The translations under genes and the position numbers were made by a program. DNA of 64,000 nt from Allocoleopsis franciscana PCC 7113 (lineage in GTDB: Bacteria; Cyanobacteriota; Cyanobacteriia; Cyanobacteriales; Coleofasciculaceae), in the NCBI RefSeq assembly GCF_000317515.1, contig NC_019738.1, forward strand, positions 6,846,001 through 6,910,000, written 5' to 3'. Shown one piece after another: positions 20,903-32,431 of this stretch (position 1 is its first letter; each line of letters begins with the position of its first letter). Under the pieces are notes generated by a model. It searched no databases. It was not told where the DNA came from and saw nothing but the letters and a program-made list of their open reading frames with translations.

Positions 20903-21928
20903 TTAATACCGAATACGCGGGTCAATCAAAGCATTGATAATATCGATCGCCATGCTAGCCACGACAACAATTGAGCCAAAAAATACCATAATTCCCTGCA
21001 CGGTTGGGTAATCCCGTTCGGAAATCGCCGCATACAAGCGATTGCCTAAACCAGGCCAAGAAAAGGTGACTTCGGTTAACACGGCTCCTCCCAGCAAGGA
21101 AGCCAGCGTTAGTCCCAACACGGTAATCACGGGAATCATCGCATTCTTCAGAGCGTGGGCGACGACAATTCGAGCTTCGGGAATACCCCTGGCTCTGGCA
21201 GCTTCCACATAATCGGCTTTCAGGGTTTGTTTCAGGTTCACTCGCACAATCCGCTCAAAAATCCCACTGAGCAGTACTCCCAATGTAATACTTGGTAACG
21301 CGAGATAATAGAGGGCGGTAAAAAACTGGTTCAGGTTGCCGCTGAGCAGGCTATCAAGGGTATAAAGACCCGTGAACCCAACAGGAGCGGGGATGGAAAT
21401 TGGGAAGCGTGTTCCCAGAGGAAACCAATTGAGTTGCACCGCAAAAATTAATTGTAAAATCATCCCCACCCAAAACAGGGGTAGGGAATAGGTAATGATC
21501 CCAAATAGGCGTCCGCCAATATCAAAAACAGTGCCACTGCGGGAGGCGGCGAGAGTCCCAATGCTAACACCCACGAGAAAAGCCACTATAATCCCAAATA
21601 CCGCCAATTCCATGGTGGCGGGGAAATGAAGCTGAATAATTTCCCATACTTTTTGACCCTGACTGGATATAGAGCTACCTAAGTCGAAATGCAGTAAGCT
21701 TCCTAGATAGCGAAGGTATTGCAACCACAAAGGGTCGGATAACCCTAACTGTTGTCGGAGTTTGTTCTTCTCTTCATCGGGAGCACGACCGCCAAGAATC
21801 GCATCAACGGGGTCTCCTGGCGTGGCTCTGAGCAGGAGAAACACGAGGGTTGTAATCGTCCACAGCATCAAAGGGGCTAGGAGTAGACGCGTCAGGACGT
21901 AATATTGTAGAGCTTTGGCACGAGACAT
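20903..21928 (-). CDS. ABC transporter permease, DppB/OppB type
   Basis: The 341-residue protein has six predicted membrane segments. The conserved N-terminal block is LLRATPGDPVDAILGGRAP and the EAA-type cytoplasmic loop is YVEAARARGIPEARIVVAHALKNAM, which docks onto the ATPase. It matches peptide/nickel permease subunit B by length and order. The companion DppC permease, ATPase and binding protein are not adjacent, as is common in cyanobacteria, so the substrate cannot be told. ATG 21928 gives the full first helix. Confidence 0.9.
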   Translation of the reverse strand: MSRAKALQYYVLTRLLLAPLMLWTITTLVFLLLRATPGDPVDAILGGRAPDEEKNKLRQQLGLSDPLWLQYLRYLGSLLHFDLGSSISSQGQKVWEIIQLHFPATMELAVFGIIVAFLVGVSIGTLAASRSGTVFDIGGRLFGIITYSLPLFWVGMILQLIFAVQLNWFPLGTRFPISIPAPVGFTGLYTLDSLLSGNLNQFFTALYYLALPSITLGVLLSGIFERIVRVNLKQTLKADYVEAARARGIPEARIVVAHALKNAMIPVITVLGLTLASLLGGAVLTEVTFSWPGLGNRLYAAISERDYPTVQGIMVFFGSIVVVASMAIDIINALIDPRIRY

Positions 21929-22124: not shown

Positions 22125-23681
22125 GTGGCACAGCTAACAGAGATAAGTACTACTGCTAGATCACAACACTTGAATGAGAGCAAGTGGTCTAATCGAGTTG
22201 CTCCGGTTACCGTCATGCCATTGGAATGTTTTTACACCTTACCTGACAGGCTAGAAGAACATCGCATTATTTGGCGAATTGAGCCACGGTTGCGCGATCG
22301 CATTAATGAGTTGTGTCAAAAAATAGATCCATTAGCAGAACTTGATGAAAAAATACTAACTTCCAGAATAGCTCGCTATTTATTTGAGATGTTACAGCAG
22401 CATCCAGAGCATGAACTCCTGCAAAGCCATTGGATCGCTTTTCTAGAAAGACGGTGTGAAAAAGTCGCTACCAGACTTGCTCATTTCAATCCTAGTTACT
22501 TTCGCGATTTAGTTTTAATAGGAGCTGAATTGGCAAACCATCCCGTCAATTTTTTTGAAAATTTTGATAGTCAACGTTCTCAATTTGAATATTGGTATCC
22601 TACCTTAAAGCGATTTGTCGATGCTAAAATTAAGTATCTAATAATTCCCAAATTTCGAGAATTAACAGGGATAGATACCCTGGGTCGAACCCCCTTAGGG
22701 TTAGCTGCACGTTCGACGCGGAAACAAGTTAAAGAAGCTTTGCATTATCTAGGTTACACTCAAGCAGAATTATCAAAATATCTGCTGGCTTGGCAGTGCT
22801 TTCAAGAAATCAGACATTCCATTAAATTGGGAGTCAATCAATTTAAAATCGAACATTTTCAGAATGTTGCCAAGCGGTATTGTGAATTTAGAGATCAACT
22901 CGCATTACCTGAGGGTCATAATCGAGATATTAATGGAGAGGAGATTAAAACTTGGCTGGAAAATATCGGAATAGCAATCCGAAAACTTTTAGACCCACCC
23001 CTTGATTCTCTCGATACATCTTTACCCGCGACGACCGATGAAAATACATCTTTATTAGAAAATATTCCTGGTCAACTCAAAGAAGATGAGGAAATGCAAC
23101 AAACTGTTGTTGCTTTTAGGGACTTTATTGCTCATTTGCTGGAAGGATTGCCAGAAACTCAAGAAAAACAATTGCTGTTTCTCAGGTATGGCTTAGAACT
23201 TAAACAAAGCCAAATGGGTAAAGAATTTAGGGGTCAAGCACAATACCAAATTAGTCGCCTGCTTCAGCGGTTGAATCAACGTATCTTAACTCAAATTTTG
23301 AATTGGGTAAAACAACATTTGGAGCTTGAACCCAGTTCCGAATGCCTGAAGGAAATTGAAGTCGTGTTATATCAATACTATTCTGATCAGATTGATGTTT
23401 TTTTTGAAAAAACCATTCAGGTTTTGGGAACCCAGAGCCGGGAGGTATTAAAATTATTTTATATTTTTCAATTGAAGCCTTCAGGGATTGGGACGAGACT
23501 TCATAAGTCGGAGGCGGAAGTAAAGGAGTTATTAGAGGTGATAAAGCAATGGGTATGCAGCAGTATAACTGAGAAAATCAAAGCTGAAATTCAACTTGAG
23601 TTGCAATCTCAAGGTGCAGCTCAAAAGAGAATAACTACCGTCACCGAAACCCGGTTAGAAACTATTCTGCAACTTTATTGA
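22125..23681 (+). CDS. Sigma-70-region-4-like protein, first gene of the CHAT/DUF1822 cassette
   Basis: The 518-residue protein has no complete sigma factor. Its later part (about 340-390) reads LPETQEKQLLFLRYGL...SQMGKEF...QYQISRLLQRL, which looks like a sigma region-4 helix-turn-helix. A second, weaker copy lies near 430-480. The N-terminal two thirds are helical and unrecognised. In cyanobacteria, proteins of this kind sit beside DUF1822 genes, which is the case here (22 bp gap). It may regulate the cassette or have lost polymerase function. The ATG at 22125 has no strong ribosome-binding site. Confidence 0.65.
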   Translation: MAQLTEISTTARSQHLNESKWSNRVAPVTVMPLECFYTLPDRLEEHRIIWRIEPRLRDRINELCQKIDPLAELDEKILTSRIARYLFEMLQQHPEHELLQSHWIAFLERRCEKVATRLAHFNPSYFRDLVLIGAELANHPVNFFENFDSQRSQFEYWYPTLKRFVDAKIKYLIIPKFRELTGIDTLGRTPLGLAARSTRKQVKEALHYLGYTQAELSKYLLAWQCFQEIRHSIKLGVNQFKIEHFQNVAKRYCEFRDQLALPEGHNRDINGEEIKTWLENIGIAIRKLLDPPLDSLDTSLPATTDENTSLLENIPGQLKEDEEMQQTVVAFRDFIAHLLEGLPETQEKQLLFLRYGLELKQSQMGKEFRGQAQYQISRLLQRLNQRILTQILNWVKQHLELEPSSECLKEIEVVLYQYYSDQIDVFFEKTIQVLGTQSREVLKLFYIFQLKPSGIGTRLHKSEAEVKELLEVIKQWVCSSITEKIKAEIQLELQSQGAAQKRITTVTETRLETILQLY

Positions 23682-25280: not shown

Positions 25281-27791
25281 ATGAGCAAGCGAGTTATATT
25301 CAGAATTGACCAAGGTGATTTTGAACAAGGGTTTTCTGTAACCTTAACAATTAAGGAAAATGGGGAGATTTGCGCTCCAGAAATCAAGGGAAAACTTGCG
25401 CCAGCAACACAAATTATTGACCGTTATAATGACTGGCAACAAGCTTACTACTCTTGGGGGCAAAGCCACCGCTGGTGGAGACGGAGGCTAGAGGTTCCAG
25501 ACCAAATCAATACAAACTATTCAAGTGCTGACAGCGAGAATAATGCTACCATTTATGCTTCCCAGTTTGAAGGGGAGCTAAATGACTGGCTAGATCGTTC
25601 GGACTTAGGAGAGTTAAGAGAGGAACTGCTACATACCGTTAACAGAAATGATTCTGTAAGCTTCATCGTCCAAACGGATAACAAAGAATTACAGAGGCTA
25701 CCCTGGGAGCTATGGCGTTTACTTAAAAATCGTTATCATCAGGCTGAAGTAGCGATAAGCAGCAGAAGTGCACCCAAAAAAGGAGCTTTGAGAAGTTCAG
25801 TTAAAATTCTAGTGATTTTGGGTAGCGATGATAAAATTGATATTCAAACCGACTGGACTATTCTTAGAGAGAAACTGCCAAATGACGAATTAGTATTGGT
25901 GGAAAAACCTAGAGCCGATGAATTTAGAGAAATTCTCATAAATCAGCCTTGGGATATTATTTTCTTTGCCGGACACAGTTCGACTCACGCCGATGGAAAT
26001 GATGCCAAAATTTGGCTTAATGAGCAAGAATATTTATCACCTCAAAAGCTAAGGAATTCTCTGGAAAAAGCCGTTAGGAATGGGTTAAAACTGGCGATTT
26101 TTAACTCCTGTGATGGATTGGGATTAGCACGACAATTGGAAACTCTGCAAATTCCTCATATCATCGTCATGCGGGAGCCGGTTCATGATGAAGTTGCACA
26201 AAAATTTTTGAATGGTTTTCTCACAAGCTTTGCTGAAGGTGCTTCTTTACATGAAGCGGTGCGCGAAGCGCGTGACCAATTAAGGTTAATAGAAAATCGC
26301 TCTCCTAATGCCTCTTGGTTACCTGTAATTTTTCAAAATCCCGAAGAACCCCCGCTATTTTATCCTGTAGAAGAGTCAGCACCGGAATTAGGAAAAGAAC
26401 CGCTAGAAAGTTCAGGAAGTAGAGCAAAGCTTAAGAAAATAGCCTGGTGTGGAATGGGTGCGATCGCACTCTGCACTCTTACTTTGGAAATCTATAAAAT
26501 CATCGATCTGCGTAAAGATTCTACCTTAGCGTCAGGAATTAGCTTGGGAGAAGAAATTCTAAGCGAAAAAAATACCACTTCTGAAAAACAAGCTGGTGTG
26601 AAAGCCTTTGGCAATGGTAACTATTCCAAGGCAGTGGCAAATTTTAAATCGTCTCTAGAGAAAAATCCTAATGATCCAGAGTCACGAATTTATTTAAACA
26701 ACGCCAAAACCGCTAATAACAAACAAACCATTAAAATTGCCGTCAGCGTACCCCTTGGCAGTAACCCATCCATAGGCGAGGAAATTTTGCGAGGTGTCGC
26801 AGAAGTGCAAGAGGAAATTAATCGCGACTACCAGATTAATGGCTTACCCTTACAGGTGGTACTCGCTAATGATAATAATGACGGTAATCTAGCTCAAGCC
26901 GTTGCTCGTAAGTTTGTCAAAGATACCAGTATTTTTGCAGTTATTGGACATAATGCGAGTAATGCTTCTACTGCGGCAGCTCCGATCTATAAAGATGGGA
27001 AATTAGCCATGATTTCCCCAACAAGCTTTGCTAACCAATTGAAAGAACCATCCTATATTTTTCGCATGGTTCCCCAAATTACTTTTTTTGCCGCGCAATT
27101 ATCTCAAGGACTTGGCAGAGCCGTTCCTAACCCCAAAGTTGCCATTTGTGTAGATAATGTATCCCCGGATCAGGAATCCTTTAGAAATGAATTTAAGTAC
27201 GTTGTTTCAGCTTATAAAGGACAGCATATTGATCTAGGCTGTAACCTTGCCGACCCAAATTTTAATCCGATTGCTGTGGTCGAGACAATTAAAAAGAACA
27301 ATGTTAATAGTTTGATGGTGGCACCCTATGTTAATAACCTGCCCAAAGCGATGGAACTCTTCAAGGCGGTTCGAGAAAGTCAGTTACCCATCAAGATGTT
27401 TGGCAGTCCAACTTTGTATAACGATAAAACCATTGAGTGGGGAGGAGAAGCAGTAGAAGGTTTGACATTATCCGTTCCCTACTTCCCTGATGAGAGAGAA
27501 AAGAATTCGTTTCGGGAACTCTGGAAGACAGAACTAAACACCTGGCGATCGCCAATGTCTAAGGATACAACAAGAGCGATTGCAACGGGTTTACAACAAC
27601 TCCTGAAATCACCACAACCAAATCGCCAGGAATTAGACAATATATTAAGAAATTCGAGTTTTAAGGTGAAGGGTGTCACGGGAGAATTCAAGTTCACAAG
27701 CAACACAGGTGAACGGGAATTTCTCTTTCAAAAAGAACGTACCGATGCTTTAATCCAAGTTAAAAACGGTAAATTTGTAAAGATTGAATAG
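25281..27791 (+). CDS. CHAT (caspase-like) protein with membrane anchor and periplasmic ligand-binding domain
   Basis: The 836-residue protein has a cytoplasmic N-terminal half with a CHAT peptidase domain (about 140-360) and the catalytic pair His232 (FFAGHSST) and Cys277 (FNSCDG). A membrane helix follows at about 385-405, then a TPR-like stretch (GNYSKAVANFKSSLEKNPND) and a type I periplasmic-binding domain (about 482-836; IKIAVSVPLG..., VIGHNASNASTAAAPIY) of the Leu/Ile/Val-binding family. The layout suggests a transmembrane receptor: an amino-acid-like ligand outside controls a protease inside. Its C-terminal part is paralogous to the protein at 30359. The start at 25281 follows AAAGGAAGC. 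Confidence 0.88.
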   Translation: MSKRVIFRIDQGDFEQGFSVTLTIKENGEICAPEIKGKLAPATQIIDRYNDWQQAYYSWGQSHRWWRRRLEVPDQINTNYSSADSENNATIYASQFEGELNDWLDRSDLGELREELLHTVNRNDSVSFIVQTDNKELQRLPWELWRLLKNRYHQAEVAISSRSAPKKGALRSSVKILVILGSDDKIDIQTDWTILREKLPNDELVLVEKPRADEFREILINQPWDIIFFAGHSSTHADGNDAKIWLNEQEYLSPQKLRNSLEKAVRNGLKLAIFNSCDGLGLARQLETLQIPHIIVMREPVHDEVAQKFLNGFLTSFAEGASLHEAVREARDQLRLIENRSPNASWLPVIFQNPEEPPLFYPVEESAPELGKEPLESSGSRAKLKKIAWCGMGAIALCTLTLEIYKIIDLRKDSTLASGISLGEEILSEKNTTSEKQAGVKAFGNGNYSKAVANFKSSLEKNPNDPESRIYLNNAKTANNKQTIKIAVSVPLGSNPSIGEEILRGVAEVQEEINRDYQINGLPLQVVLANDNNDGNLAQAVARKFVKDTSIFAVIGHNASNASTAAAPIYKDGKLAMISPTSFANQLKEPSYIFRMVPQITFFAAQLSQGLGRAVPNPKVAICVDNVSPDQESFRNEFKYVVSAYKGQHIDLGCNLADPNFNPIAVVETIKKNNVNSLMVAPYVNNLPKAMELFKAVRESQLPIKMFGSPTLYNDKTIEWGGEAVEGLTLSVPYFPDEREKNSFRELWKTELNTWRSPMSKDTTRAIATGLQQLLKSPQPNRQELDNILRNSSFKVKGVTGEFKFTSNTGEREFLFQKERTDALIQVKNGKFVKIE

Positions 27792-27804
27792 CTAGATCTA
27801 ACAG

Positions 27805-27860
27805 AACTGCATATTTCTCTCACTCTATCCCAATACCTTATCGGACGGGTTAGAAGTGAG
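27805..27860 (+). promoter_or_regulatory. Duplicated leader element, copy 1 (upstream of the kinase)
   Basis: This block begins AACTGCATATTT, continues CTCACTCTATCCCAAT and ends GTTAGAAGTGAG. It recurs at 29351-29406, almost unchanged except for a central variable piece. CTCACT-CTA near the start can pair with TAG-AAGTGAG at the end, giving a hairpin whose right arm carries the ribosome-binding GTGAG just before the start codon. That could mask translation. Its duplication before two genes of the same cassette suggests common control. Confidence 0.6.
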
Positions 27861-27867
27861 AGCAGCT

Positions 27868-29343
27868 ATGTTAGAAGAAGAACAGGTATTACACCACCGC
27901 TATCACATTCAACGTCAGTTGGGACAAAATGCTGGACGGCGTACCCTACTGGCTCAAGATTTACATACCCAGGAACTCGTTGTCCTCAAAATTCTTAGTT
28001 TTAGCAGTGACTTCCGTTGGGAAGATTTGAAATTGTTTGAAAGAGAAGCCGAAACCCTCAAATCTCTATCCCATCCAGCGATTCCCCACTATCTTGATTA
28101 TTTTGAATTACACTTACCCAATTGTCGGGGATTTGTCCTTGTGCAAAGTTACATTGATGCCACCTCATTGCAGGAATGGATTAAGCGAGGGCGAACATTT
28201 AGTGAGGATGAAGTTAAACAAATTGCTAAGGCGTTACTCAATGTATTGAGCTACTTGCATGAGCGCAATCCTCCTGTAATTCATCGCGATATCAAGCCCA
28301 GCAATATTTTACTCAAAGGCGATCGCTCGGCTCATCAGGTAGGAGACTTATACTTAGTTGATTTTGGTTCTGTGCAAACGGCTGTCCGAGAAATTGGGAC
28401 GATGACGATTGTGGGAACCTATGGCTATATGCCACCCGAACAATTTAGCGGACGTGCCTTCCCAGCTTCCGATTTGTATAGTTTAGGTGCAACGTTAATC
28501 TACTTGGTAACAGGGATGCATCCGTCTGATTTGCTGCAAGAAAATTTGTTGCTTGAATTTGAACCCGTGACGCATCTTTCTCCAAACTTTGTGCAATGGC
28601 TCAAGCTTTTGACGCATCCCAACCGCAAGCAACGATTGAGTTCAGCGACGGTTGCATTGAAAGCGTTAGAACAGCCTTTTGTTCAATCCCAACTGATTGA
28701 ATCATCAACTACATCAACTCCTTTAACTCTGCAAAAACCTGTTGACAGTAAAGTCTCTCTGTACAAGGATGAAGAAACTTTAGAGATATACCTACCTCCA
28801 GAAAAATTGGCTGAAGGCGTAGGAGCAATAGGTTGTTATTTCCTCATGTTCTGCTTTTTTACTGTCATGTCGCTGAGTTGGTTATCTGTCTCTGTACCTA
28901 GTGGTAACTGGTTCGTTACCTCAATTGGCTTGATGTTCTTCTGTATCGGAATTTATTGTCTGTGCCAACCTGCTTTCGCCGCAAATGAACACACACGCAT
29001 CCATATTGATCAAAAATCAGTGACTGTAACTAAAACAGCATTTGGAAGACGGCAGCAGGTTTTTCATGCCAGTCGCAATAACCTGTATAAATTAACCTAT
29101 GTTAAACGCCTCTATCGTCAAGGTAGTGAAGGGGACATTGAAGAGGTATCACCAGAGTTAAAAATTTGGGCGAGACAGATTGCTACTTATAGTGGTCATT
29201 ACCAAGACATCAGCTATCGCATCGGGCAATCGGTGAGTGCGGACAACAAAACCCGCTTTTATGGTCGTCTAACAACCCCAGAACTCGATTGGTTGGCACA
29301 AGAATTAAGTAACTGGTTGGGTTTACCCATTTCAAGAGATTAG
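27868..29343 (+). CDS. Ser/Thr protein kinase with C-terminal double membrane segment
   Basis: A Hanks-type kinase of about 491 residues. It has the glycine-loop region LGQNAGRRTLLA, Lys41 in VVLKIL, HRDIKPSN (139-145), DFG (165-167), GTYGYMPPEQF and a conserved arginine near the lobe end. After the kinase domain (about 10-270) comes a linker, then two adjacent membrane helices (about 325-375) and a cytosolic tail of about 115 residues of unknown fold. I chose ATG 27868 over GTG 27856 because the GTGAG in that stretch is best read as the ribosome-binding site. It follows the CHAT gene and shares its leader with the next gene. Confidence 0.88.
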   Translation: MLEEEQVLHHRYHIQRQLGQNAGRRTLLAQDLHTQELVVLKILSFSSDFRWEDLKLFEREAETLKSLSHPAIPHYLDYFELHLPNCRGFVLVQSYIDATSLQEWIKRGRTFSEDEVKQIAKALLNVLSYLHERNPPVIHRDIKPSNILLKGDRSAHQVGDLYLVDFGSVQTAVREIGTMTIVGTYGYMPPEQFSGRAFPASDLYSLGATLIYLVTGMHPSDLLQENLLLEFEPVTHLSPNFVQWLKLLTHPNRKQRLSSATVALKALEQPFVQSQLIESSTTSTPLTLQKPVDSKVSLYKDEETLEIYLPPEKLAEGVGAIGCYFLMFCFFTVMSLSWLSVSVPSGNWFVTSIGLMFFCIGIYCLCQPAFAANEHTRIHIDQKSVTVTKTAFGRRQQVFHASRNNLYKLTYVKRLYRQGSEGDIEEVSPELKIWARQIATYSGHYQDISYRIGQSVSADNKTRFYGRLTTPELDWLAQELSNWLGLPISRD

Positions 29344-29350
29344 GGAAATA

Positions 29351-29406
29351 AACTGCATATTTTTCTCACTCTATCCCAATCCTAAATTAGATGCGTTAGA
29401 AGTGAG
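29351..29406 (+). promoter_or_regulatory. Duplicated leader element, copy 2 (upstream of the PspA-like gene)
   Basis: Second copy of the block at 27805-27860: AACTGCATATTT, CTCACTCTATCCCAAT, then a diverged central 15 bases, then GTTAGAAGTGAG ending 7 bases before the ATG at 29413. The conserved ends and diverged centre suggest selection for pairing or for protein binding at the ends. Confidence 0.6.
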
Positions 29407-29412
29407 GAACTC

Positions 29413-30186
29413 ATGAAACCGACTAACTCTACTCAGAATAACCTGAACTCGCCTAAGCAGTGGCTTGTGCCATTAGTTCTCACTATCCTTACGGGTTTAG
29501 GTTTTAAGTTAATTTGGACAAAATCTGGACGTACCCTCATGGCAATCTGGAATTGGTTGTGGGGTATTCCTATTGAATCCGGCGGCAAAATTGCGGTAGA
29601 AGCAGCGTGGGACTCTGTAAAATCGATGCAACAATCCGTCGCTCAACTGGCTGAATCTGTTGCGACAGCCGTTGCTGCTTATGAGAAAGTTAAATCGAAA
29701 TATGCAGCCAAACAGCAAGAATTTAAACAGGCTGAAAATCAAGCTTTACTCGCTTATAAACAAGCTAATGAAGAAGCGGCAAGACTGGCAATGAGTCGGG
29801 CTATTGCAATTGAACGGCTACTCCCGAAAATGGGTGAACAAGTCAGTCAAGCTGAAAAAGTTGTCGTATCTGCCAAAGCAAAACTGCATCGAGAACGAGA
29901 AAAATTAGAAGCCTATCAAACAGAGATGCAAAATCTTAAGGCTTTAGCAGAAATCAACGAAGCATTAGAAACAATTGCCCAAGTTGATAGTACTTTAGAT
30001 ATTAATTCAGCTCGCTATCAATTTGAATCAGCACAAGCAGCCGTCGAAGAGCGATATTTCAAAGCAAATGCCCACGCGGAACTCATTGAAAATCCTGCTG
30101 AAAGGCTGCAAGCAGATTTAGATCATTTGACACTTAACGATGAAATTTCCCGCCGCCTCGCCCAATTGAAAGGCGAACGAGGCTGA
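29413..30186 (+). CDS. Membrane-anchored coiled-coil protein, PspA/IM30-like
   Basis: The 257-residue protein has one N-terminal membrane helix (about 17-35, VPLVLTILTGLGFKLIW) followed by a long alanine-, glutamate- and lysine-rich coiled coil (about 70-205). The C-terminal part (ARYQFESAQAAVEERYFKAN) recalls PspA/Vipp1 helices. A membrane anchor is not usual for PspA, so this may be a distant relative or a convergent coiled coil. Its position in the CHAT/kinase cassette and the shared leader suggest a role in membrane sensing or repair downstream of the receptor. The function is inferred. Confidence 0.6.
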   Translation: MKPTNSTQNNLNSPKQWLVPLVLTILTGLGFKLIWTKSGRTLMAIWNWLWGIPIESGGKIAVEAAWDSVKSMQQSVAQLAESVATAVAAYEKVKSKYAAKQQEFKQAENQALLAYKQANEEAARLAMSRAIAIERLLPKMGEQVSQAEKVVVSAKAKLHREREKLEAYQTEMQNLKALAEINEALETIAQVDSTLDINSARYQFESAQAAVEERYFKANAHAELIENPAERLQADLDHLTLNDEISRRLAQLKGERG

Positions 30187-30358
30187 TTATAGATTTGGGA
30201 GGCAAGGATTTTAGATTAAAAAAGTATTCCCTTATTTACTCCCGCTAAAATCGTTAATTCCATTATCAGAAATCAACTCCCAAGTCGAGAATCTGCTGGC
30301 TTTATGGCATCACCTCCGTTTCTCTCCAAATCGAACTGTAGAAAGAATCTAAACTATT

Positions 30359-31720
30359 ATGGAAACCACAGAAGCCGTCAGAGTTAAAAAACGCCGAATT
30401 CCTCCCATTTTCTATATTCTGATGGTAGGATTAAGCTTAATTTCAGCTCCTCGATTTTTAGGTACTTTTAAAAGCGGGTCTAGGAGCGGAAGTATTGGCA
30501 ATTATTTGCTAATTTCCGAAAAGGTAACTTCCGATAAAAAACAGGGAATTGAAGCCTTTGCTAAAGGAGATTACCAACAAGCGATCGCATCCTTTAAAAA
30601 CTCCCTTCTCCAACAACCAAACGACCCGGAAACGCTCATCTACTTAAATAACGCCCAAGCCGGAAATGATGCCCTGAAGATAGCAGTAAGTGTACCCATT
30701 GGTAGCAACTTAAACGTAGCTCAAGAAATCCTGCGGGGGGTGGCTACAGCCCAGGCTGAAATTAACAAAAATGGCGGGATTAACGGACAGAAATTGCAAG
30801 TTCAGATTGTCAATGATGAAAATGACCCAAAAATTGCCCGAAAACTAGCTCAGGATTTAGTTAACGATCCACAAGTTCTTGGGGTTTTGGGACACAATTC
30901 CAGTGATGCCTCTCTCGCGGCTGCTCCGATCTATCAAAAAAAGGGATTGGTGATGATATCTGCCACCTCATCAGCCAATAATCTCTCTGGATTTGGTAGC
31001 TATATTTTTCGCACCGTTCCCGCAGCGAATGTAATGGCAGAAACTTTAGCCGACTATGCGATTAAAACGGCCCGCAAAACCAAAATTGCCTTTTGTTACG
31101 ATTCCCAAACACAGAGCAATGTTTCGTTCAAAGATGAATTTTTGGCGGCGTTAGTAAGCAAGGGAGGGCAATTAGTACCAACCGTTTGTGACTTATCAGC
31201 TCCTAACTTTAACCCCTCTACGGCGGTGACTCAAGCTATTAACAGTGGTGCTGATGGGTTGTTTATTTCCAGCCACATTGATCGCATAGAATCTGCGATC
31301 GCGCTGGCAAAAGCCAATCAAGGCAAATTAGCTCTATTTAGCAGCCCCACATTATATACCGTCAAAACCTTACAAGCTGGGCAGCAGGACGTTAAGGGAT
31401 TAGCCCTCGCCGCCCCTTGGCATCCCCAAGTTAACCCGTCTTTTGCACAAAAAATGACTCAACAGTGGCGCGGAAAAGTTAGCTGGCGCACTGCTACCGC
31501 CTATGATGCTACCCAAGCCATGATTGCAGGGTTGCAGCAAAGTCAAAACCGTGAAGGTTTACAGCAAGCGTTGCACAGTCAGGGGTTTAGCGTCCAGGGA
31601 GCCAGTGGTGCTGTCAGATTTGCTCCTAGTGGCGATCGCATCAGTCAGCCAGTCATTGTCCAAGTTCAGTCTAAGGGTGTTGATCACGACTTCGTGATGC
31701 TACCGACAACAGACCCCTGA
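30359..31720 (+). CDS. Membrane-anchored periplasmic ligand-binding protein (paralogue of the CHAT receptor's sensor half)
   Basis: The 453-residue protein has an N-terminal basic stretch (KKRR), one membrane helix (about 15-33), a TPR-like motif (AKGDYQQAIASFKNSLLQQPND), and a Leu/Ile/Val-type binding domain (about 105-450) with IAVSVPIGSN and LGHNSSDASLAAAPIY. These motifs align directly with residues about 430-836 of the CHAT protein at 25281. It lacks any peptidase or other output domain. It may be a decoy or co-receptor that competes for the ligand, or the ancestral sensor. No ABC permease or ATPase genes adjoin it, so a transport role is unlikely. Confidence 0.85.
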   Translation: METTEAVRVKKRRIPPIFYILMVGLSLISAPRFLGTFKSGSRSGSIGNYLLISEKVTSDKKQGIEAFAKGDYQQAIASFKNSLLQQPNDPETLIYLNNAQAGNDALKIAVSVPIGSNLNVAQEILRGVATAQAEINKNGGINGQKLQVQIVNDENDPKIARKLAQDLVNDPQVLGVLGHNSSDASLAAAPIYQKKGLVMISATSSANNLSGFGSYIFRTVPAANVMAETLADYAIKTARKTKIAFCYDSQTQSNVSFKDEFLAALVSKGGQLVPTVCDLSAPNFNPSTAVTQAINSGADGLFISSHIDRIESAIALAKANQGKLALFSSPTLYTVKTLQAGQQDVKGLALAAPWHPQVNPSFAQKMTQQWRGKVSWRTATAYDATQAMIAGLQQSQNREGLQQALHSQGFSVQGASGAVRFAPSGDRISQPVIVQVQSKGVDHDFVMLPTTDP

Positions 31721-31843
31721 ACAGTTCAACCTATACCCTATACTTTCCTATCCAATAGGAATGAACTGAAAATCAGAGCCAAAAACTCTGCGTCTCTTTG
31801 CGAAAACCTCCGTGACCTCTGCGTTAAAAAACCAATTACTCCG

Positions 31844-32431
31844 ATGCTAACGGATTCGATATCAGTTGGAAACCAAGTTTTGTCCTCGTCAGCTCAAACC
31901 TTCTTGCAAAAGCTAAAACAGCTTGACTTGGAGTCAATCGAAAAGCGACTCATGCAATCCGGGTGGACTCGCCAGCAAGCCACATTGGCGATTAACCGCT
32001 ACAAAATGTTCTTATCTGTAGCCTATCTGCATCCCCACATTCCGCTAGTCCCGTCTCAAGAAATCGATCGGGTCTGGCATTACCACATTTTGCATACACG
32101 CAAGTATTATCAGGATTGTCAGATGCTGTTCGGTCGTTTCCTTCACCATGAACCTGATGTAGAGTACTGGCATCAGCCAAACCCAGTTTCGCTGAATACC
32201 GCTTTTGCTCAAACCACAGCACTCCTGGTGCAGTACTTCGGTAACACAGCGTTAGGAGATGCCCGCTTGGAGCAACCTGACAGCCTCTTAATTTCAGAAA
32301 ACTTGCCTCAACAACAGCCATTATCTGAAAACGGTGACTTCCACCTGCATCCTAGTGCCTGTGGCAGACCGACAAGCCGCCTACTGGAAACATCCGACTT
32401 GAGACCAGCCACAAATTGCCCAAACCTTTGA
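31844..32431 (+). CDS. Glycine-rich-domain-like (DUF1399) protein
   Basis: The 195-residue protein has the N-terminal helical domain seen in glycine-rich-domain-containing proteins, with EIDRVWHYHILHTRKYYQDCQMLFG (about 66-90) as the signature. Its histidines suggest a metal site. The C-terminal 60 residues are low complexity and proline/serine rich. Function is unknown in bacteria. The upstream spacer (about 31785-31835) carries the dispersed CTCTGCG...CCTCTGCGTT sequence common in cyanobacteria. The ATG at 31844 fits the domain start. Confidence 0.7.
   Translation: MLTDSISVGNQVLSSSAQTFLQKLKQLDLESIEKRLMQSGWTRQQATLAINRYKMFLSVAYLHPHIPLVPSQEIDRVWHYHILHTRKYYQDCQMLFGRFLHHEPDVEYWHQPNPVSLNTAFAQTTALLVQYFGNTALGDARLEQPDSLLISENLPQQQPLSENGDFHLHPSACGRPTSRLLETSDLRPATNCPNL

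What the first reader, a model, noticed from the sequence alone, without database searches (positions are those of the whole stretch)
25281..31720. A caspase-like protease wired to an external ligand sensor, with a separate sensor paralogue and kinase
The CHAT protein joins a cytosolic His232/Cys277 protease to a membrane helix and a Leu/Ile/Val-type binding domain. Two genes later comes a Ser/Thr kinase, then a membrane coiled coil, then a second anchored copy of the same sensor without the protease. This looks like a transmembrane receptor system in which an outside metabolite controls proteolysis, possibly leading to stress response or regulated death, with the free sensor as decoy or co-receptor.
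Basis: partly seen in the sequence, partly recalled or inferred. Interest (0 to 1): 0.78.

Follow-up and report, generated by a model that had tools for sequence, protein, structure and literature searches.

The report
Caspase-like receptor with external solute sensor
A cyanobacterial gene cassette encodes a caspase-like protease that spans the membrane and carries a nutrient-binding-type sensor outside the cell, and beside it a relative of the ESCRT-III membrane-remodelling proteins paired with a second anchored sensor; this suggests that bacteria may wire outside solutes to both proteolysis and membrane remodelling.

Summary
The cassette is real. The protease (25281-27791) is an EACC2-CHAT receptor: cytosolic CHAT domain with invariant His/Cys, one membrane helix, TPR-like stretch, type I periplasmic binding protein (PBP). 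It belongs to a published kind of system (EACC2 + caspase + DUF1822 + sigma factor, variable C-terminal sensor); I did not find the PBP variant described. The 'membrane coiled coil' is a PspA/IM30 (ESCRT-III superfamily) protein. It and the free sensor, not the kinase, are the recurring partners. In most genomes the PspA-like protein sits beside an N-terminally anchored PBP of either of two unrelated folds, both with the same 'PPI(V/F)(F/Y)I' anchor. In 30 testable loci examined after this prediction was written down, 25 had an adjacent PBP and 24 of those the anchor. PBPs beside kinases carry another anchor. So the free sensor is best read as the sensor of the PspA-like protein, not as a decoy. 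Best model: one envelope cue, two outputs (protease/transcription and membrane). Ligand, substrate and phenotype are unknown; death is not shown.

The parts
22125..23681 (+). sigma-70-like protein, 518 aa, strongly diverged
   Evidence: TIGR02937 37.3 bits (cut-off 42.9), Sigma70_r4_2 16 bits (cut-off 25.7): both below cut-off; same place in the cassette in L044-L047, L050, L051, L225
23703..25085 (+). DUF1822 protein, 460 aa
   Evidence: PF08852 268.4 bits; next to CHAT-PBP in 22 of 24 loci outside the window
25281..27791 (+). EACC2-CHAT-TM-TPR-PBP receptor protease, 836 aa
25281..25640 (+). N-terminal alpha+beta domain (residues 1-120), assigned to EACC2
   Evidence: model strands 2-13, 17-26, 35-39 then helices 43-62, 85-106, 110-119; residues 1-358 are 45% identical to a CHAT-CHASE2 protein of the same genome
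25662..26300 (+). CHAT protease domain (residues 128-340)
   Evidence: PF12770 54.3 bits
25974..25976 (+). codon of His232 (FFAGHS)
   Evidence: invariant 21 of 21
26109..26111 (+). codon of Cys277 (NSCDGLG)
   Evidence: invariant 21 of 21
26424..26513 (+). membrane helix (model helix 382-411), with RAKLKK before its hydrophobic stretch
   Evidence: N-in orientation inferred from the positive flank
26727..27713 (+). type I periplasmic binding domain (residues 483-811)
   Evidence: PF13458 81.1 bits; Foldseek 3hut E 3e-19, also GABA-B receptor 7c7s E 8e-13
27856..29343 (+). Ser/Thr kinase with two C-terminal membrane helices (optional member)
   Evidence: Pkinase 132.3 bits, HRDIKPSN and DFG motifs present, hydropathy peaks at 322-340 and 352-370; near 3 of 19 type I loci, common elsewhere
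29413..30186 (+). PspA/IM30 (ESCRT-III superfamily) protein, 257 aa
   Evidence: PF04012 52.5 bits; model hairpin 57-116/120-195, Foldseek best hits Vipp1 and PspA; profile to Vipp1 E 6e-13
29545..29586 (+). conserved N-terminal segment IWNWLWGIPIESGG of the PspA-like protein
   Evidence: W46, W48, G51 invariant in 30 sequences
30359..31720 (+). free anchored sensor TM-TPR-Peripla_BP_6, 453 aa
   Evidence: PF13458 139.4 bits
30401..30418 (+). anchor motif PPIFYI at the start of the membrane helix
   Evidence: only match of the coded pattern in the whole own genome, both strands
31774..31790 (+). terminator-like stem just after the free sensor
   Evidence: the number of such sites is not above shuffles (13 found, mean 10.8)

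Best explanation
The cassette is a Venus-flytrap variant of the EACC2-CHAT systems, joined to an ESCRT-III-like output. Step 1 (inferred from the fold): a small solute outside the plasma membrane closes the type I binding domain of the 836-aa receptor. Step 2 (inferred): the closure passes through the TPR-like stalk and the single helix and switches on the cytosolic CHAT protease, which acts on itself or on its DUF1822/sigma-like partners and so changes transcription. Step 3 (inferred; the gene pairing itself is shown): the free anchored sensor is the sensing arm of the PspA-like protein. Its PPI(V/F)(F/Y)I anchor docks the conserved WNWLWG segment of the PspA-like protein, so the same or a related cue also controls a membrane-remodelling coat. 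Step 4: the kinase is an optional extra. Shown: architecture, conserved dyad, co-occurrence, ESCRT-III membership of the coil by sequence and predicted fold, and an anchor that follows the partner gene rather than the PBP fold. Not shown: ligand, substrate, physical contact, phenotype.
For: Receptor: domains and helix; dyad 21 of 21 plus 8 of 8; fold of the sensor. Same TPR-PBP exodomain on other effectors: caspase C14 in L058 and L059, AAA_35 and a kinase in L056. CHAT is also fused to the unrelated type II PBP (PBP_like_2) in 5 of 386 genomes. System: own-genome paralogues are CHAT-CHASE2 with DUF1822-like neighbours, as Kaur et al. 2021 describe (PMC8195603, section 9 read). PspA pairing: 36 of 38 intact anchored PBPs within 1.6 kb of a PspA-like gene carry the anchor, 14 type I and 22 type II; 0 of 24 same-strand PBPs near a kinase without PspA do. 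Written-down test: 25 of 30 testable new loci had an adjacent PBP, 24 of 25 with the anchor, 7 type I and 17 type II. Anchor follows partner: the own-genome PBP type II in a kinase locus has the kinase-type anchor although its domain lies in the PspA-type clade. G278 carries one open frame that joins PspA-like, anchor and PBP type II.
Against: No ligand, substrate or contact is shown. The fused and free sensors of the window belong to different clades (39% identity), so the same ligand is not shown; fused and local free sensor fall in one small clade in only three loci, L229, L245 and L057. In the type II fusions the fused sensor belongs to the kinase-type clade, not to the adjacent PspA-type clade. 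10 of 24 CHAT-PBP loci outside the window have no PspA-like gene nearby (L009 and L218 are short contigs). The sigma-like protein is below every family cut-off. Loci are related, so the p-values overstate independence.
Confidence: 0.55

Rival explanations
1. One reading: the free sensor is a decoy or co-receptor that tunes only the CHAT receptor; the PspA-like protein is incidental.
For: The free sensor is close to the fused one in L229 (74%), L245 (83%) and L057 (58%); both are encoded together in the window and in L010, L043-L047, L050, L051, L225.
Against: The anchored PBP is paired with PspA-like proteins in many loci without a CHAT gene beside it, and then often with an unrelated PBP fold. 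In the window the two sensors are only 39% identical.
Confidence: 0.15
2. Neighbourhood only: PspA-like and anchored PBP form an old membrane housekeeping pair (often between fabD and plsC), and EACC2-CHAT cassettes happen to land beside it.
For: Many PspA-PBP type II pairs sit in a fabD/plsC context without CHAT; 10 of 24 CHAT-PBP loci outside the window lack PspA.
Against: Adjacency with CHAT-PBP recurs in several families and in different gene orders, although a genome usually has a single PspA-like copy. The CHAT neighbours carry PBP sensors of type I or II.
Confidence: 0.2
3. Envelope immunity: the binding domain detects an invader product or damage signal rather than a nutrient, and the protease triggers dormancy or death (conflict system as in Kaur et al.).
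For: EACC2 systems are proposed conflict systems in multicellular bacteria (PMC8195603, passages and section 9); many CHAT matches in the own genome (54); sensor domains are exchanged between loci.
Against: No model of PADLOC-DB beyond weak or generic kinase matches; the sensor fold is that of solute-binding proteins and keeps the S79-equivalent serine in 81 of 82.
Confidence: 0.3
4. Orphan transport proteins: the sensors feed an ABC transporter.
For: Family name and fold.
Against: None of the named cassette genes is a permease or ATPase (the nearest, a permease at 20903-21928, is on the other strand and of another family); N-terminal membrane anchors; fusion to protease, caspase, AAA and kinase domains.
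Confidence: 0.04

Closest known systems
EACC2-caspase systems (Kaur et al. 2021, eLife, PMC8195603)
   Same: Constant N-terminal alpha+beta domain plus caspase-like domain, variable C-terminal sensor with membrane helix, DUF1822 and sigma-factor genes next door (section 9 read)
   Different: The main text names CHASE2 and unspecified small-molecule-binding domains; 'peripla' does not occur in it. PspA-like protein and free sensor are not mentioned in the passages I read. Its figures and supplements were not seen.
PspA/IM30/Vipp1 (ESCRT-III superfamily)
   Same: PF04012 above cut-off, helical hairpin, closest solved folds Vipp1 and PspA
   Different: Conserved WNWLWG segment and frequent pairing with an anchored binding protein. 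A PspA/Snf7 operon with AAA+ ATPase, ABC transporter and a PBPB-OmpA protein is in print (PMC11237479, passages) but is a different arrangement.
GlnH-GlnX-PknG of actinobacteria (PMC9769921, PMC6069109; search listing with start of abstracts)
   Same: A periplasmic binding protein used as a signalling sensor for a cytosolic effector
   Different: There the effector is a kinase reached through a separate membrane protein; here sensor and protease are one chain.
HetF (cyanobacterial CHAT protein; PMC8406250, search listing)
   Same: CHAT protein of cyanobacteria (recalled); weak NCBIfam match, 17.3 bits
   Different: Far below the cut-off of 1200 bits; no PBP domain mentioned in the listing.
Class C GPCRs (GABA-B, glutamate receptors)
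   Same: Type I PBP fold as an external receptor domain (7c7s E 8e-13)
   Different: Different transmembrane and effector parts; analogy only.

Membership tests
[quoted passage not shown]
   Secondary structure of the model, CHAT above cut-off, 45% identity over residues 1-358 to a CHAT-CHASE2 paralogue. No EACC2 profile was available, so the domain itself was matched by position and kinship.
EACC2-caspase system | variable C-terminal sensor or effector domain, may be extracellular with TM helix | tested here: met
   PBP type I in the window; PBP type II and CHASE2 in relatives
EACC2-caspase system | DUF1822 gene next door | tested here: met
   PF08852 268.4 bits; 22 of 24 other loci
EACC2-caspase system | ECF sigma factor gene next door | tested here: inconclusive
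   518-aa sigma-like protein, best family scores below cut-off
EACC2-caspase system | protease activated by sensed stimulus | not testable with these tools
   dyad conserved; activity not measured
PspA/IM30 (ESCRT-III superfamily) | PF04012 above curated cut-off | tested here: met
   52.5 against 33.9 bits
PspA/IM30 (ESCRT-III superfamily) | long helical hairpin, fold of Vipp1/PspA | tested here: met
   helices 57-116 and 120-195; Foldseek E 1.1e-4 to 6zvr; model of middling confidence (pLDDT 75, pTM 0.51)
PspA/IM30 (ESCRT-III superfamily) | polymerises on membranes | not testable with these tools
   no assay here
Leu/Ile/Val-binding protein (amino-acid binding) | type I PBP fold | tested here: met
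Leu/Ile/Val-binding protein (amino-acid binding) | acidic residue for the ligand amino group (LIVBP E226, recalled) | tested here: not met
   proline in both window sensors
Caspase proper (Peptidase_C14) | C14 domain | tested here: not met
   the window protein hits CHAT, not C14; C14 is fused to the same sensor in L058 and L059

The most novel reading that the evidence does not exclude
Cyanobacteria use a modular envelope-signalling scheme in which an N-terminal anchor sequence, not the binding domain, decides the output: solute-binding domains of two unrelated folds are plugged onto a PPI(V/F)(F/Y)I anchor to control an ESCRT-III-like (PspA) membrane remodeller, onto a KNET-type anchor to control a Ser/Thr kinase, or directly onto caspase-like proteases (CHAT or C14). 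The window cassette couples two of these outputs, so that an outside solute would gate both proteolysis and membrane remodelling.
Probability: 0.35. Interest if true: 0.86.

Novelty: new variant of a known kind. Interest (0 to 1): 0.63.

Why it matters
What stimulates bacterial caspase-like proteases is largely open (my knowledge of the field). Here the sensor is a tractable, soluble-type binding domain outside the membrane, so the ligand can be found by direct binding assays. If the anchor rule holds, it gives a way to predict the output of many anchored binding proteins of unknown role. It would also put an ESCRT-III-like protein under a solute sensor, a form of control that my searches did not turn up.

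Tried and rejected
Kinase as core member: rejected. A kinase lies near 3 of 19 type I loci and relatives 70-74% identical lie on other contigs or in a genome without a PspA-like match.

Same-sensor rule (fused sensor always a copy of the local free one): rejected as a rule. In three loci the fused sensor falls in the clade of the local free one (L229 is its sister; L245 and L057 share a clade with it and one more free sensor), not in the other loci with a local free sensor, nor in the type II fusions.

Leucine-type ligand: not supported by pocket residues.

Known defence system: no specific PADLOC hit. Kinase matches to PD-T4-6 models are generic kinase similarity in my judgement; the BovA match of the CHAT protein is weak, 15.3 bits.

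Promoter and terminator scan: counts not above shuffles.

Literature: no paper held both CHAT domain and Venus flytrap, nor PspA, ESCRT-III, cyanobacteria and substrate-binding protein, nor CHAT domain, cyanobacteria, periplasmic binding and caspase. DUF1822 with CHAT gave one paper; EACC2 gave three, one relevant. Three further searches gave no description of this cassette in the listings. The passages read in PMC10907252 and PMC13051332 did not describe it. Subscription journals are mostly not held.

In one search the two non-P intact cases are L073 (one-letter variant GPSPIVFI) and a second PBP in L095; L095 was left out of the Fisher table. One P-anchored PBP with a kinase on the opposite strand (L033) stands outside the 24 kinase neighbours; the second table counts it against the rule. 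Misses of the prospective test: no adjacent PBP in L246, L258, L259, L260 and L268; a PBP with another anchor in L265.
Full report
Setting. The window lies in an 8-Mb cyanobacterial genome (G000; named relatives that carry the fusion: Iningainema, Phormidium, Microseira). The genome has 54 matches to the CHAT family, so a CHAT protein as such is ordinary here.

The observation. The 836-aa protein carries CHAT and Peripla_BP_6 above cut-off. AlphaFold gives an alpha+beta N-terminal domain, the CHAT region, a long helix 382-411, three TPR-like helices and the binding domain, mean pLDDT 83. Foldseek finds LivJ-type proteins first (3hut E 3e-19) and also the GABA-B receptor. His232 and Cys277 are invariant in 21 of 21 aligned fusions, and the H and C are present in 8 of 8 more. 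Corrections: the kinase is the next gene; the coiled coil is PspA/IM30 family; the free sensor is a relative (39%), not a copy; the cassette begins at 22125.

What it belongs to. Kaur et al. 2021 (PMC8195603; [quoted passage not shown] The window fits: residues 1-358 are 45% identical to an own-genome paralogue that is CHAT-CHASE2 with a DUF1822-like neighbour, one of the architectures in that paper. DUF1822 lies beside CHAT-PBP in 22 of 24 loci outside the window. The main text of the paper does not contain 'peripla'. So the kind is known and the sensor is a variant that I did not find in print (searches).

The sensor as a portable receptor part. The TPR-PBP exodomain is fused to CHAT in the window and, at full length, in 11 of 385 other genomes, to a C14 caspase (L058, L059), to AAA_35 and to a kinase (L056). 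CHAT is also fused to the unrelated type II PBP_like_2 in 5 of 386 genomes. On a tree of 94 type I domains the CHAT label needs at least 8 changes by starred branches. In L229 the fused sensor is sister to the local free sensor (74% identity, support 100); in L245 (83%, support 82) and L057 (58%, support 97) it shares a clade of three with the local free sensor and one more free sensor. In the other loci with both, including the window, it is in a separate clade. Sensors have therefore been exchanged, but the window's pair is not a recent copy.

The PspA-like protein. PF04012 52.5 bits. The model has a hairpin of helices 57-116 and 120-195. Foldseek's first 15 hits are Vipp1 or PspA entries, E 1e-4 to 5e-3; the profile finds Vipp1 at 6e-13 and yeast Snf7 at 0.016. 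A conserved WNWLWG segment precedes the hairpin. It was found in 40 of 386 genomes of the phylum sample, mostly one copy each, two of these (G089, G227) only at about 1e-9. Only the best few candidates of a genome were scored, so this is a lower bound.

The pairing rule. Of 40 PspA-like genes in the fetched loci, 33 have as next gene downstream an N-terminally anchored PBP, of type I (as in the window) or of type II, the latter often in a fabD/plsC context. Both types share the anchor motif PPI(V/F)(F/Y)I at the membrane helix although the domains are unrelated folds. Of 38 intact anchored PBPs within 1.6 kb of a PspA-like gene 36 carry it (14 type I, 22 type II); of 24 same-strand PBPs near a kinase without PspA none does, and most of these carry a KNET-type anchor, again on both folds. 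A Fisher test gives 4e-16, but the loci are related, so the number is only indicative. The DNA pattern for PPI(x)(F/Y)I has one match in the own genome, the free sensor; in 13 genomes it has 24 matches, 8 in frame in an open reading frame, and the 6 of these near an N-terminus before a membrane helix are anchored PBPs, one of them cut by a contig end and identified only by its start.

Prospective test. Before looking, I wrote down the prediction for 32 new loci. One was the known Microseira contig and one ended at the PspA-like gene. Of 30 testable, 25 have a PBP within 450 bp, and 24 of these 25 carry the anchor, 17 type II and 7 type I. Five have no adjacent PBP (L246, L258, L259, L260, L268); in L265 the anchor differs. 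CHAT-PBP fusions or an EACC2-CHAT gene lie nearby in 5 of the 31 (L245, L246, L248, L250, L265).

Anchor follows partner, not domain. In the own genome, outside the window, L233 encodes kinase, anchored PBP type I and anchored PBP type II, both with KNET anchors; yet that PBP type II domain falls in the clade whose other members mostly have the PPI anchor and sit beside PspA (support 99). In genome G278 a single open frame holds most of the PspA-like protein, the anchor and PBP type II. It may be a deletion or an assembly error, but it is in frame.

Mechanism. The anatomy shows a one-pass receptor with the sensor outside and the protease inside; the orientation rests on the positive flank before the helix and on the domain types. 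That ligand binding switches the protease is inferred. The likely targets are the protein itself and its DUF1822/sigma partners, in line with the proposal of Kaur et al. The pairing data suggest that the free sensor serves the PspA-like protein, so the cassette has a transcription/proteolysis arm and a membrane arm. Whether both arms see the same ligand is open: S79 of LIVBP is kept in 81 of 82 domains, E226 is not, and the window sensors differ at several pocket positions (contacts recalled).

Against the reading. The kinase is not core. Ten of 24 CHAT-PBP loci outside the window have no PspA-like gene nearby. In the type II fusions the fused sensor is of the kinase-type clade, not of the adjacent PspA-type clade. 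No function was measured. A PspA/Snf7 operon with transporter genes and a PBPB-OmpA protein is already described (PMC11237479, passages), so a PspA-PBP link is not wholly without precedent.

Verdict. A real, conserved, multi-gene receptor system; a new variant of the EACC2 kind, with an unexpected ESCRT-III-like partner and an anchor rule that can be tested directly.

Noticed in passing
own genome G000:C1:608001-626000 (locus L233), outside the window: Kinase, anchored PBP type I and anchored PBP type II in a row, both PBPs with a KNET-type anchor; the same kind of arrangement in L219-L223, and without the type II protein in L224. Looks like a PBP-to-kinase signalling locus.
   Followed up: partly
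L116:9440-10840 (genome G278): One open frame joins the PspA-like protein, the PPPIVFI anchor and a type II PBP; natural fusion, deletion or assembly error.
   Followed up: partly
L010:2346-12556 (Microseira wollei): Four CHAT-PBP receptors in tandem before the PspA-like and free-sensor genes; a subtilase gene lies where the kinase is in the window.
   Followed up: no
L011:10001-13030 (Iningainema tapete): CHAT-PBP is split into two open frames and the PspA-like frame is short (112 aa): decay or sequencing errors.
   Followed up: no
window 31844-32431; L225:8710-10152; L250:4463-6028: Proteins of similar start or with a shared IDxVWHxHxLxTRxY motif, weak match to GRDP-like in the window, in or beside the cassette in three genomes; a possible further optional member (read by eye).
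   Followed up: no
L058:8999-11524 and L059:8038-10545: The same TM-TPR-PBP exodomain on a Peptidase_C14 caspase: a second caspase-like family given the same sensor.
   Followed up: partly
L239, L240, L241, L228: Another kinase gene sits between fabD and the PspA-like gene in these housekeeping-type loci.
   Followed up: no
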